Assembly: GCF_036711975.1 (NCBI RefSeq)
Contig: NC_091976.1
Location: 31,434,001 to 31,498,000 of the forward strand
Source of the DNA: Onthophagus taurus
Lineage: Eukaryota > Arthropoda > Insecta > Coleoptera > Scarabaeidae
Reading direction: 5' to 3'
DNA: 64,000 nt
Below the pieces are notes generated by a model. That model was given only the letters and a program-made list of their open reading frames with translations, ran no database searches and was not told the DNA's origin. Below are positions 27,201 to 45,349 of this stretch, piece after piece. How positions within the stretch are numbered: the stretch's first letter is position 1; each line of letters opens with the position of its first letter. The translations under genes and the position numbers were made by a program.

Positions 27201-30200
27201 TGTGCAGTCCTTATGTTGTTGATTCAGTTCTTTTTCTCTATTACCAGGCCGTTTCTAGTTTCTCTCATCTCTATCCAGGCTCATTTTTTTCTTTTCATGT
27301 TCTATTCAACGTCTTTCTTTCATTACTGGCCTCTATCTTTTCATTGCACTCTCTTTGCAGTCCCTATGATGTCTGTCTAGCCCCTTTCTTCTATTAGCTA
27401 TCTCTTTCCAATTTCCCTCGTCTGTCCAGTATAATTTTTCTCATTCTCAGTATTTTGCTTCTCATTCTAGTCTCTGTTTGATCTGTTTCCTCTATTTCTG
27501 GTCTCTTTGAAGTCCCTATGTTTTCTATCCAGTCTCTCTTTTCTAGTAAAAGTCTCATTCCAGTCTTCCTTCTCTCTACCTTGTTTTACTTTTTCTTTTC
27601 CAATGTCTATTCCATCTTTTCTTTCTATTACCAGTCTTTTTCTTCTCATTTCAGTCCCTGTTCGATCTGTTTCTGCAGTCCCTACGTTGTAAATCCAGTT
27701 TCTTTTTTCTATTACCAGGCCGGTTCTAGTTTCGCTCACTTTTTTTTTTCATTGTCTATTCAATGTCTTCCTTTTATTAGCAGTCTCTATCTTTTCATTG
27801 CACTCTCTTTGCAGTCCCTATGATGTCTGCCTAGCCCCTTTCTTCTATTAGCTATCTCTTTCCAATTTCCCTCGTCTGTTCAGTATAATTTTTCTCATTC
27901 TCAGTATTTTGCTTCCCATTCTAGTCTCTGTTTGATCTGTTTCCTCTATTTCTGGTCTCTTTGCAGTCCCTATGTTTTCTATCCAGTCTCTCTTTTCTAG
28001 TAAGAGTCTCATTCCAGTCTTCCTTCTCTCTACCTAGTTTTACTTTTTCTTTTCCAATGTCTATTCCATCTTTTCTTTCTATTACCAGTATTTTTCTTCT
28101 CATTTCAGTCCCTGTTCGATCTGTTTCTTTTATTTTTGGTCTATCTGCAGTCCCTACGTTGTAAATTCAGTTTCCTTTTTCTATTACCAGGCCGTTTCTA
28201 GTTTTGCTCACTTTTTTCTTTTCATTGTCTATTCAATGTCTTCCTTTTATTGGCAGTCTCTATCTTCTCATTTCAGTCTCTTTGCAGTCCCTATTCTGTC
28301 TGTCTAGCGCCTTTCTTCTATTAGCTATCTCTTTCCAATTTCCCTCGTCTGCCCAGTATCATTTTTCTCATTATCAATATTTTTCTTCCCATTCTGGTCT
28401 CTGTTTGATCTGTTTTTTCTATTTGTGGTCTCTTTGAAGTCCCTATGTTTTCTATCCAGTCTCTCTTTTCAATTAAGAGCCTCATTCCAGTCTTCCTTCT
28501 CTCTACTTAGTTTTACTTTTCCTTTTTCAATGTCTATTCCATCTTTTCTTTCTATTACCAGTCTTCTTCTTCTCATTCCAGTCTCTATTTCTTTTATTTC
28601 TGGTCTCTCTGCAGTCTCTATGCTGTTGGTTCAGTCTCTTTTTTGTATTACCAGGCCGTTTCGAAACAAATTGAACAGTGACTGGTATGGGAAGAAAAAT
28701 ACTGGTAATAGAAAGAAAAGATACAATAGATATTGAAAAAGTAAATGTAAGATTGGGCAGAGATAAAGGACTGGTAATACAAGGAAAAGACTGAGTTGTC
28801 ATTAAAAGACAAAAAGGTAGATTAAGCAGATCAAGACAATGTGTCATTGAGATTAGGTAGAGAGCTTGTGCAATTATGAATATCGTTTCATTTTTCACCA
28901 GCTGTGGTTTCCAGCTATAAAAAAACAAGATTTGCATTGAAAGTCTTAATTTTTGCAAAAAATACATTGATCGATTGAGAATAGAATATTTCAAGAACGA
29001 AATCCAATGGGATAAAATGTCATACTTTAATGTCAATTCTAAACTTAATTTTCTACCAAAAAAATTCTTAGATTTCTAAAAAATATCATCTTAATGGCGA
29101 AATAAACGTATTAATATATATAATTAACATACAATTAACATATAATTAACATTTTTATTCATTTTATTCATGATCATCCTTAAAGAAAAAAAGTTTAACT
29201 GAGATCTTGAGATGTGTACCTTGAAAGTATAAAAATGTAAAGTTGTTTTAATATTAGTTTCTTTTTTTTTATTTTAGAAAGAATTAGTTAATAAATATGG
29301 TTATCCACTTGAAGCTTATCAAATCACAACGACGCAAGGTTACATTATTACTTTACATAGGATACCTTATGGAAGAAAACGAACCGGAAGAAAAAGACAG
29401 GTGGTATTGTTACATCCGGGTTTTTGTGGTTCACCAGAATTATTTTTATTTCGAGGACCTCAACATGATATGCGTAAAAAACTTTTCAAATCTTAAAGAA
29501 AAAAATAACTTTCTAATAACCATAAAACTTTACAGCTTACTTATTCACCGATTCAGGTTATGATTTTTGGTTCATCAACAATCGAGGTAACACATACTCA
29601 AGAAATCACGTCATTTTAAATCCGGACGTTGATAAAGAGTTTTGGAATTTCACTTTAGACGATTCCGGTTTACACGATTTACCCAATTCTGTTGATTTTA
29701 TATTAGAGAAAACCGGCCAAGATGGTTTAATCTTAATCGGATATTCAATGGGTGCTGGTGTTGGTCAAATCATGTTATCCCGAAGACCGGAGTATAACCA
29801 GAAAATTAAATTATTTATTAATTTAGCACCGAGTGTTTATGTGATGCACCAGTTGATGCCTCAACTACGAATGGTTTTTAATTTAATTCCTGTTCTTGCG
29901 GAAAACATTATGAACAATTATAATATTTACGAATTATTTCCACGAACTAAAACTCGAGAGGAAATTTTAACAGCTTTTTGTCTGAATGGATCAAGAACGC
30001 AACGATTGTGTGTAATGATAGCGTTTTTAGCTATGGGATTTGATTATGAACAATTTAACACGGTAATTTTGTTGTTGTTTTATTAAATTGATGTATTGTT
30101 GAATTTATTTTAGGATAATTTTCCAAATATTTTTAAATATTTTCCGGATGGGACATCAATTCAATCGATTCTTCATCTACAACAAATGTACACAACGGGT

Positions 30201-30500
30201 GAATTTAAACCATACGATTATGGAAACGAAACGAACCAAATTCTTTATAATTCTACGAAACCCCCGGAATATGATTTAACGAAAAATGTAGCACCGATGG
30301 CGATTTATTACGGCGATGGGGATTATATTGTGGCCAAAGAAGATTGTGTGTTTTTAGCTGAAAAATTACCGAATGTTGTCGGATTATTTCGAGTTCCGTT
30401 TAGAAATTTTAATCATTTAGATTTTATGTGGGGTATTAACGCAAAAGAACTTGTTTACGACCATATGAACAAATTAATAAATAAATATAGACAATATTAA
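24225..30500 (+). CDS. Acid lipase (lipase 3-like), lipase 1 of the cluster
   Basis: Proposed exons: 24225-24395, 29278-29473, 29536-30062 and 30114-30500. Exons 2-4 are clear: KELVNKYGYPLEAYQ and LHRIPYG (the acid-lipase N-terminal region), NNRGNTYSRNH, the nucleophile motif GYSMGAG, an Asp in YGDGDYIV and a His in NFNHLDFMWG, so the triad is complete. A Cys pair (AFCLNG...LCVM) matches the conserved disulfide. Exon 1 is inferred: it encodes MSPLCWLRFVLLLVMMVRGT, a signal peptide, then ends in phase 0 at a GTAAGA donor just where family members join (SSLDAV|KELVNKYGY). That makes intron 1 about 4.9 kb long, filled by the GA-rich satellite. Likely role: secreted or lysosomal hydrolysis of triacylglycerol or esters. 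It is the most diverged lipase of the cluster (HPGF in place of HG at the oxyanion strand). Confidence 0.8.
25340..28790. repeat. GA/CT-rich satellite with inverted halves
   Basis: Purine-rich on the plus strand from 25340 to about 26356, pyrimidine-rich from about 26356 to 28670, then purine-rich again to about 28790. Units contain GACTGGAATGAGAAGA, ACTGGTAATAGAAAGAAAAG and ATAGAATAGACATTGAAA or their complements. In the pyrimidine part the mark CTCTGTTTGATCTGTTT recurs near 26492, 26985, 27474, 27925 and 28409, a period of about 450-490 bp. All open frames here (rich in F, S, L, or R, K, E, N) are translations of the repeat. The bases from about 28790 to 29277 are AT-rich with nothing recognised. 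Confidence 0.92.
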
Positions 30501-43879: not shown

Positions 43880-45311
43880 ATGCTTAAAACATTTACATTT
43901 TTTATATTAACTTTAATAATCGCGGTTAGTGCCGTATCGGATGATGATGCATATAAAGATGTTGTAAGTAAAGAAGAAATTAATAATTTATTTAAATAAT
44001 TTAAATTTTTAATGAATTTTAGGATGAGTTAATTGAGAAATATGGTTATACTTTAGAAAAACACACAGTAACAGTCGATGGGAACATATTGGAACTTCAC
44101 AGAATACCTAATAATGATAATAAAAAAGTCATCTTGATTATGCATCAATTTTTAACCAGTTCCGCTGATTTTGTAAGTAATGGGAATCAAAGTTTAGCGT
44201 TTTTATTGGCCGATGAAAATTATGATGTATGGCTTGGAAATGCTAGAGGTAATACGTATTCAAGAAATCATGAATCGCTAAATCCAGCAAATGATAACGA
44301 ATATTGGCGATTTAAGTATGTATTATCTTATCGTTTTTATAAATTATTGAACTAATAATATCCTTTTTTGCTTAAATAGTTTAAATGATGTTGCAAAAGT
44401 TGATTTACCAGAAATAATCGAATATATTACAACAACCACAGGGGCAGAAGAAATTTTTTATGTTGGTCATGGTCAAGGAAGTACGTTATTTTACATTATG
44501 GCATCTGAATTGCCCGATTATAAACCTCCAATTAAACGTATGGTAGGTTTAGCACCAATGGCTCATATGGACAATATGCCAAATTTATTCTTTAGAATCT
44601 TAAATACTGTACCTACTATATTGGGTGATGGTTTGGATCTTAAGGTTAGTGATTATTAAGTTGATTCATGTTTGTATTTATAAAAATTAATGTTTAGTCT
44701 ATCTTCGGACTACTTGACCTGCTGTTAAAAAGTAAACTTAATGACATGTTTTCAAAAACCGAAAATTATATCTTTGCTAAATTATGCGATGATGAAGCAT
44801 TGTTGGTCGAATTATGTGCTGGGTTTGTTAACTTAATCTACGGTTTTGATAATGGACAAATTCCAAGAGTAAGTATTATTCTTAAAAAATATATTTAACT
44901 CCTTAGTTTTTTTTATAGAGTAAAGTACCTGTAATGCTATCTAATGCATACGCAGGAAGCTCTTTTCAACAATTAAAAAGTTATGTGGACATGTATCTTA
45001 ACGGTAAATAGATAAATAAGAAATTAATTAATTAATTAATTCGTATAATTTAAGATGGATTTGCCAAAAATTACAAAAACTTGGGAAATATTGATATACC
45101 CAATGCGATATTTTATGGACTTAACGATTGGTTGATATCCACAACAGACATTGAACATTTAGCGGATGATTTAAAAAACAGTTTAAAGTTAAAATACGAA
45201 ATTCCCGGCACGGACTTCACTCATATCAGTTTTCTTTTTGGAAAAGATGCAAAGGAACTCGTTTACGAGCCGTTATTGGAATTTTTAGAAGGGAAGGATA
45301 TAAACGCTTAA
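43880..45311 (+). CDS. Acid lipase-like protein lacking the catalytic Ser, lipase 2
   Basis: Six exons: 43880-43963, 44023-44315, 44380-44644, 44698-44868, 44919-45003 and 45055-45311; all phases fit and the frame is open for about 384 residues. Exon 1 gives a signal peptide (MLKTFTFFILTLIIAVSA). Family marks: DELIEKYGYTLEKH, LHRIP, YDVWLGNARGNTYSRNH, Asp in YGLNDWLIS, His in TDFTHISFLFG, and the Cys pair KLCDDEALLVELC. The nucleophile motif is FYVGHGQGST where other members have GHSQG: the Ser codon AGT/TCT is GGT (Gly). The oxyanion strand reads MHQF in place of MHG/MHC. So it is expected to be secreted but unable to act as a serine lipase; it may bind lipid or another lipase. AATAAA at 45344-45349. 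Most introns of any member. Confidence 0.88.
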
Positions 45312-45349
45312 TTTGAATTATATATCGTTCAAATATTTAACATAATAAA

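What the first reader, a model, noticed from the sequence alone, without database searches (positions are those of the whole stretch)
43880..45311. Intact secreted acid lipase paralogue with the catalytic serine changed to glycine
In the sequence, the nucleophile elbow reads YVGHGQGST (codon GGT) while lipases 5 and 6 have GHSQG, lipases 3 and 4 GYSQG and lipase 1 GYSMG. The rest of the gene is whole: six exons in phase, a signal peptide, Asp and His of the triad and the Cys pair. An open frame of 384 residues with five clean introns is hard to keep by chance, so a non-catalytic role (lipid carrier, decoy, partner of the active lipases) is a fair inference. AGT to GGT is a one-base change, so it could also be very recent.
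Basis: partly seen in the sequence, partly recalled or inferred. Interest (0 to 1): 0.75.

Follow-up and report, generated by a model that had tools for sequence, protein, structure and literature searches.

The report
Secreted acid lipase without catalytic serine
One gene in a large insect cluster of fat-digesting enzymes has lost its key catalytic residue and part of its active-site cover yet keeps an intact reading frame, so it most likely does a non-enzymatic job such as holding lipids; dead enzymes of this kind are already known in insects.

Summary
Window 43880-45311 (+) encodes a 384-residue acid lipase in six GT-AG exons with a likely signal peptide. Residue 157 is Gly where 25 of the 26 other elbow-bearing acid lipases modelled in this genome have Ser (the 26th has Asn). 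Asp324, His356 and the cap cysteine pair are kept. The proposed one-base AGT-GGT change is not borne out: Ser is TCN in 25 of 25 genes and in the reconstructed ancestor, so at least two substitutions were needed. More has changed. The cap-core latch described for human lysosomal acid lipase (His274, Ser122, loop 286-304) is replaced or missing; the loop region has 15 residues against 31-33 in 24 Ser-bearing insect genes. Own lost 12 of 43 near-invariant columns, against 8 of 263 in six Ser-bearing genes of shorter branch. Yet the frame is whole and branch dN/dS is 0.11 (1 rejected, LRT 41; synonymous sites saturated). A second dead paralogue (Asn for Ser and for His) is also 10 residues short in that loop. 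Best reading: an old, maintained non-catalytic acid lipase, probably binding lipid. Non-catalytic insect lipases are in print, so this is a new member of a known kind. Function, expression and orthologues are untested.

The parts
43880..45311 (+). Gene of the Ser-less secreted acid lipase, 384 aa, six exons
   Evidence: splicing and translation; PF00561 and PF04083 above cut-off
43880..43963 (+). Exon 1: start codon and likely signal peptide
   Evidence: signal peptide by inspection only
44023..44315 (+). Exon 2
44143..44151 (+). Oxyanion-loop codons His69-Gln70-Phe71 in place of His-Gly-Leu (human LAL 65-67)
44380..44644 (+). Exon 3, with the nucleophile elbow
44471..44473 (+). Codon GGT, Gly157 at the catalytic serine position
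44698..44868 (+). Exon 4: lid region, with about 7 residues more than the other models; Cys244 (44785-44787) and Cys254 (44815-44817)
44919..45003 (+). Exon 5 (85 bases, the same length as in several paralogues); Ser292 at 44979-44981 stands at human LAL His274
45055..45311 (+). Exon 6: lacks about 17 codons that the paralogues have here (18 against human LAL: 286-293 and 298-307); Asp324 (45126-45128), His356 (45222-45224), stop
45344..45349 (+). AATAAA polyadenylation-signal match, beginning 33 bases after the last base of the stop codon
   Evidence: by inspection

Best explanation
The gene encodes a secreted member of the insect acid (lysosomal/gastric-type) lipase family that cannot work as a serine hydrolase and has been kept by selection. 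It has no nucleophile, so it cannot form an acyl-enzyme (follows from the known mechanism). The latch that in human lysosomal acid lipase holds the cap on the core is dismantled (shown by alignment to an enzyme of solved structure), while the cap disulphide cysteines remain and the residues aligned to the hydrophobic cavity beside the active site are Phe, Met, Phe, Tyr and Leu. The most likely work is binding: a lipid or other hydrophobic ligand held in the old acyl pocket under a remodelled cap, for storage, transport or sequestration outside the cell. Shown: the sequence state, an intact frame, average constraint on the branch, the two-step codon change and the cap changes. Inferred: that constraint continued after Ser was lost, that the protein folds, that it binds lipid, and where it is made.
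For: Intact frame and splice sites. Ser in 25 of 27 modelled acid lipases that reach the elbow, TCN in 25 of 25; ancestral codon TCN with summed posterior 0.99 on the best tree and 1.0 on another. Branch dN/dS 0.107 against a background of 0.097; dN/dS = 1 rejected, LRT 41.2. End branch 1.01 changes per column, with no starred group within half of the rows that holds it, so an old lineage. 12 of 43 near-invariant columns lost against 8 of 263 pooled over six Ser-bearing genes with branches 0.53-0.85 (Fisher p 7e-7; substitutions alone 6 of 37, p 0.003). The changes match a known network: PMC7397744 (passages read) says human LAL His274 contacts Ser122 and Gln285 and stabilises a loop-helix-loop at 286-304. 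Own has Ser at 274 (His in 23 of 24 Ser-bearing insect models), Asn at 122 (Ser in 23 of 24), and 15 residues in the stretch aligned to 280-312 where the 24 have 31-33. Cys227/Cys236 are kept.
Against: Synonymous sites are saturated (about 10 neutral units on the branch), so dN/dS is an average that includes the time before Ser was lost; a neutral tail of up to about 0.2 substitutions per codon is not excluded by the codon model alone. No orthologue, transcript, population or protein data; no structure was predicted. Single pieces of the active-site change also occur in genes with Ser: C11b2 has Gln at 274 and Ala at 277; Pro214 is Ser in 3 of 24; position 66 is Cys in 8 of 24 and 67 is not Leu in 9 of 24; Gln285 is kept in only 5 of 24. 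Three Ser-bearing genes with longer branches lost 6-7 of 46-48 near-invariant columns. A hydrophobic pocket is what an active lipase has too, so it does not by itself show a binding role.
Confidence: 0.58

Rival explanations
1. A recent pseudogene or null allele: the serine was lost a short time ago, nothing keeps the gene, and stops have not yet appeared.
For: The codon model allows a neutral tail of about 0.2 substitutions per codon, and with 0.01 neutral changes per site the frame and splice sites would survive with probability 0.44. Truly broken copies occur in the family (g17 and the C11:13.31 Mb fragment).
Against: TCN to GGT needs two changes. 9 of 46 alignable near-invariant columns are substituted and about 17 codons are deleted in frame; the best joint probability of so many changes with no stop or splice loss was 0.003 under neutral decay, Ser itself counted.
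Confidence: 0.14
2. A partner or decoy of the active lipases of the cluster: it pairs with them, or occupies lipid surfaces or inhibitors in the gut, and so regulates digestion.
For: Same tandem array as 22 Ser-bearing models; a signal peptide by eye; lid region about 7 residues longer than in the other models.
Against: Nothing here tests an interaction, and there are no expression data. Gastric-type lipases need no colipase (recalled).
Confidence: 0.15
3. Still an enzyme, by another nucleophile or by a His-Asp pair that activates water.
For: Asp324 and His356 are kept, and Ser160 lies three residues after Gly157.
Against: Ser160 is not at the elbow, and paralogues g18 and g20 with a normal Ser have the same SerThr pair after it (GHSQGST, GYSQGST). 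The oxyanion loop is changed and the cap latch is lost.
Confidence: 0.05
4. Assembly or base-calling error at the serine codon.
For: No reads could be examined, and the assembly search showed no second copy of the gene.
Against: Two bases of the codon would have to be wrong, and 11 further near-invariant columns are lost as well.
Confidence: 0.02

Closest known systems
Human lysosomal acid lipase (6v7n), human gastric lipase (1hlg) and dog gastric lipase (1k8q)
   Same: Same family by sequence (E 7e-46 to 1.4e-43); Asp and His of the triad; cap cysteine pair
   Different: Gly for Ser153, Gln-Phe for Gly66-Leu67, Leu for Pro214, Ser for His274, 18 residues of 286-307 missing, 7 residues more in the lid region
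Non-catalytic insect lipases (Pteromalus puparum; five acid lipases of fig wasps; about 10% of insect neutral and acid lipases on average)
   Same: Lipase genes with an incomplete triad (PMC7240578 and PMC9143690, passages read)
   Different: In the fig wasp passage two acid lipases have Glu for Ser, two lack Ser and one lacks His; Gly is not named. None was compared with this gene by sequence
Lipase-like yolk proteins (neutral type in higher Diptera, acid type in Lepidoptera, as stated in PMC7240578)
   Same: Secreted lipase-fold proteins said to bind rather than cleave lipid
   Different: No expression or orthology data here; the link is by analogy only
Second Ser-less paralogue in the same cluster, g14 (C11:31536455-31535226, minus strand)
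   Same: Intact frame, no Ser, the same cap loop shortened (22 residues against 31-33), Ser122 also changed
   Different: Asn at both the Ser and the His positions, GFNQA elbow, His274 kept; 27% identical; apart on the best tree, though one clade is not rejected (p-AU 0.398)

Membership tests
Acid lipase family (PF04083 / PF00561), as a sequence family | Pfam Abhydro_lipase and Abhydrolase_1 domains above curated cut-off | tested here: met
   47.7 bits against 27, and 55.1 against 25.8 (that query had Ser instead of Asn at residue 126)
Catalytically active acid lipase | Ser-Asp-His triad with GxSxG elbow | tested here: not met
   Gly157 in place of Ser; Asp324 and His356 present
Catalytically active acid lipase | His-Gly-Leu oxyanion loop | tested here: inconclusive
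   HQF in own, but Ser-bearing paralogues vary too: Cys at 66 in 8 of 24, other than Leu at 67 in 9 of 24
Catalytically active acid lipase | Cap-core latch: His274, Ser122 and loop 286-304 of human LAL | tested here: not met
   Ser, Asn and about 17 residues missing against 24 Ser-bearing insect models (latch described in PMC7397744)
Acid lipase family | Cap disulphide Cys227-Cys236 | tested here: met
   Cys244 and Cys254 align to them; the bond itself was not tested
Acid lipase family | Signal peptide | tested here: inconclusive
   Typical by eye in exon 1; no predictor was run
Non-catalytic insect lipase | Whole gene with an incomplete triad | tested here: met
   average constraint on the branch, with the saturation caveat
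Lipase-like yolk protein | Made in fat body or ovary and taken up into eggs | not testable with these tools
   No expression data held

The most novel reading that the evidence does not exclude
Loss of the nucleophile and loss of the cap latch go together. Both Ser-less paralogues are short in the loop aligned to human LAL 286-304 (15 and 22 residues in the stretch counted), while all 24 Ser-bearing insect models that reach it have 31-33. That would make a class of acid lipases turned into open-capped lipid-binding proteins, perhaps twice in one cluster.
Probability: 0.2. Interest if true: 0.55.

Novelty: new member of a known kind. Interest (0 to 1): 0.36.

Why it matters
It adds a clear, testable case of an enzyme probably turned binder inside a large cluster of active genes, with a proposed structural correlate (latch lost together with the nucleophile). 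If the protein binds lipid, it would be a candidate lipid carrier in this insect and a comparison for lipase-derived yolk proteins. That insects hold dead lipases is already in print.

Tried and rejected
Rejected: a one-base recent Ser loss (TCN in 25 of 25). A hidden exon carrying the missing cap segment: intron 5 has 51 bases with an in-frame TAG, and paralogues carry the segment in an exon right after the homologous 85-base exon, so the segment is taken as deleted, not mis-spliced. A Ser-less clade: the two dead genes are apart on the best tree, but one clade is not rejected. Orthologues: a genome-contig scan gave 50 pattern matches, none a relative; the tool says the genome has no relatives held. 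The species could not be identified from two paper searches.

Paper searches: (acid lipase, beetle, gene family, catalytic serine; lysosomal acid lipase, pseudoenzyme) returned none; one search listed one paper, one search listed 15 of 17, two, 15 of 43, three. Of these I read passages of PMC7240578, PMC9143690 and PMC7397744 only; none was read whole.

Full report
What is there. The window is G000:C11:31434001-31498000 of a 290.8 Mb genome. The gene at 43880-45311 splices in six exons with five GT-AG introns of 50-64 bases into 384 residues. It hits PF00561 and PF04083 above cut-off, and its nearest solved relatives by sequence are human lysosomal acid lipase (LAL) and human and dog gastric lipase. 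It lies in a tandem array of acid lipase genes at C11 31.463-31.601 Mb. 27 of these 28 models reach the nucleophile elbow; the other, g17, is a remnant. A further fragment at C11:13.31 Mb is not counted.

The catalytic residue. 25 of the 27 have Ser. This gene has Gly157 (GHGQG), and g14 (C11:31536455-31535226, minus strand) has Asn (GFNQA) and also Asn for the catalytic His, with an open frame to its stop. Here Asp324 and His356 are kept. All 25 Ser genes use TCN codons (20, five more). Marginal reconstruction at the parent node gives TCN with a summed posterior of 0.99 on the best tree and 1.0 on an alternative tree. GGT therefore needs two substitutions or more. The one-base AGT route is unlikely, and so is a base-calling error.

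More than one residue has changed. Over columns identical in at least 95% of the Ser-bearing rows (24 insect models without g16, plus LIPA and LIPF; each row judged against the others), own lost 12 of 43 (6 substituted, 6 deleted) and g14 15 of 43. The six Ser-bearing rows with end branches 0.53-0.85 (g24, g15, g20, C7, g22, g21) lost 8 of 263 together. The three with longer branches than own (C11b1, g0, C11b2; 1.48-1.63) lost 7 of 48, 6 of 46 and 6 of 46. Fisher p for own against the pooled six is 7e-7, and 0.003 for substitutions alone; Ser157, which drew attention to the gene, is one of the six substitutions, and neighbouring deleted columns are not independent. At a looser threshold (85%) own lost 19 of 60. 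Own thus stands out from genes of shorter and of longer branch.

Where the changes lie. In human LAL numbering own has Gln66 and Phe67 for Gly and Leu, Asn for Ser122, Leu for the hinge Pro214, Ser for His274, Asp for Gln277, and lacks 286-293 and 298-307. PMC7397744 (abstract and passages read) gives the triad Ser153-Asp324-His353 and a cap of residues 184-309 with lid 215-244, and states that His274 contacts Ser122 and Gln285, sits between Tyr123 and Phe287 and stabilises the loop 286-304; it names G66V and H274Y among human deficiency mutations. Among the 24 Ser-bearing insect models that reach this region, His274 is kept in 23, Ser122 in 23, Gln277 in 23, Pro214 in 21, Gly66 in 16, Leu67 in 15 and Gln285 in only 5. 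In the stretch aligned to 280-312 they have 31-33 residues, own has 15 and g14 has 22. So His274, Ser122 and the loop are the telling changes; Gln285 and the oxyanion positions vary among genes with Ser, and C11b2 lost His274 and Gln277 with Ser in place. g14 keeps His274 but has Cys at 122. Kept in own are Cys227/Cys236 and Gly245; cavity positions 67, 182, 192, 275 and 326 are Phe, Met, Phe, Tyr and Leu, positions that also vary among the Ser-bearing models.

Is it maintained? On 22 cluster genes and 336 codons a single dN/dS is 0.097. The own branch alone gives 0.107 (LRT against one ratio 0.07), and dN/dS = 1 on it is rejected with LRT 41.2; for g14 the values are 0.208 and 13.5; ten other end branches gave 0.043-0.137. 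With own placed beside g5/g6/g8/g9, a tree 8.8 log units worse, own has 0.118 and LRT 52.7. The branch is saturated at synonymous sites (about 10 neutral units), and it includes time before the loss. A model with a constrained part followed by a neutral tail loses 1.6 log units at 0.2 substitutions per codon and 2.6 at 0.3, so a short recent neutral tail is not excluded. About 5% of single-base changes make a stop (177 of 3456); at 0.05 neutral substitutions per site the frame and splice sites would survive with probability 0.017, indels ignored. Asking at once for 9 of 46 alignable near-invariant columns (the 52-column set) to be substituted and for no disabling change, with a background loss of 3.5% per column and 73% of changes non-synonymous (both assumed by me), the best joint probability was 0.003, at 0.04 substitutions per site. 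It would be somewhat higher without the Ser column. Recent neutral decay is thus unlikely but not formally excluded.

Age. The protein tree (29 rows) gives own an end branch of 1.01 changes per column, highest identity 43-44% (g5, g6), and no starred group within half of the rows that holds it. It also has introns that several neighbours lack. It looks like an old lineage, so orthologues should exist in related species; none could be found here.

Mechanism. With no nucleophile the acyl-enzyme step is impossible (established mechanism of serine hydrolases). Loss of the latch that in LAL ties a cap helix to the loop 286-304 suggests an altered or more open cap over a pocket lined by hydrophobic residues. 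The best guess is a secreted binder of lipid or another hydrophobic ligand. Rivals are a regulator or decoy of the active paralogues, a recent pseudogene, and an unusual enzyme.

Known context. PMC7240578 (passages read) says that on average 10% of insect neutral and acid lipases have lost the catalytic motif (citing Horne et al. [quoted passage not shown] PMC9143690 (passages read) reports five acid lipases (2.7%) with incomplete triads in 12 fig wasps, none described in the passage as Gly. The kind is therefore known, and two of 27 here is in that range. What is less usual is the joint loss of nucleophile and cap loop in both dead genes, but with only two cases it may be coincidence, and it cannot be told whether the losses were independent.

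Noticed in passing
G000:C11:31536455-31535226 (minus strand; locus L013): A second acid lipase without Ser (GFNQA) and without the catalytic His (Asn), with an open frame to its stop, a shortened 286-304 cap loop, and a likely signal-peptide exon upstream.
   Followed up: partly
Paralogues g2, g3, g4, g7, g10, g11, g12, g13 (window lipases 3, 4 and 5 are g2, g3 and g4): Eight genes with intact Ser read His-Cys-Leu-x-Cys at the oxyanion loop in place of His-Gly-Leu; they form one supported clade. Gly66 to Val at the same place is a human deficiency mutation (PMC7397744).
   Followed up: no
Window lipase 1 (g0), modelled part 29281-30488; and g20 at C11:31577062-31575735: Both have intact Ser but Pro-Gly instead of His-Gly at the oxyanion loop (HPGFCG and TPGLDM).
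   Followed up: no
C11:31555608-31555393 (L015) and C11:13.31 Mb (L027): Broken copies of the family: a 72-residue remnant, and a fragment that reads nearly like g6 over about 50 residues.
   Followed up: partly
C11:31545487-31541962 (g15; L014): An intron of about 3.5 kb in one array member, where the other models have introns of mostly 45-65 bases.
   Followed up: no
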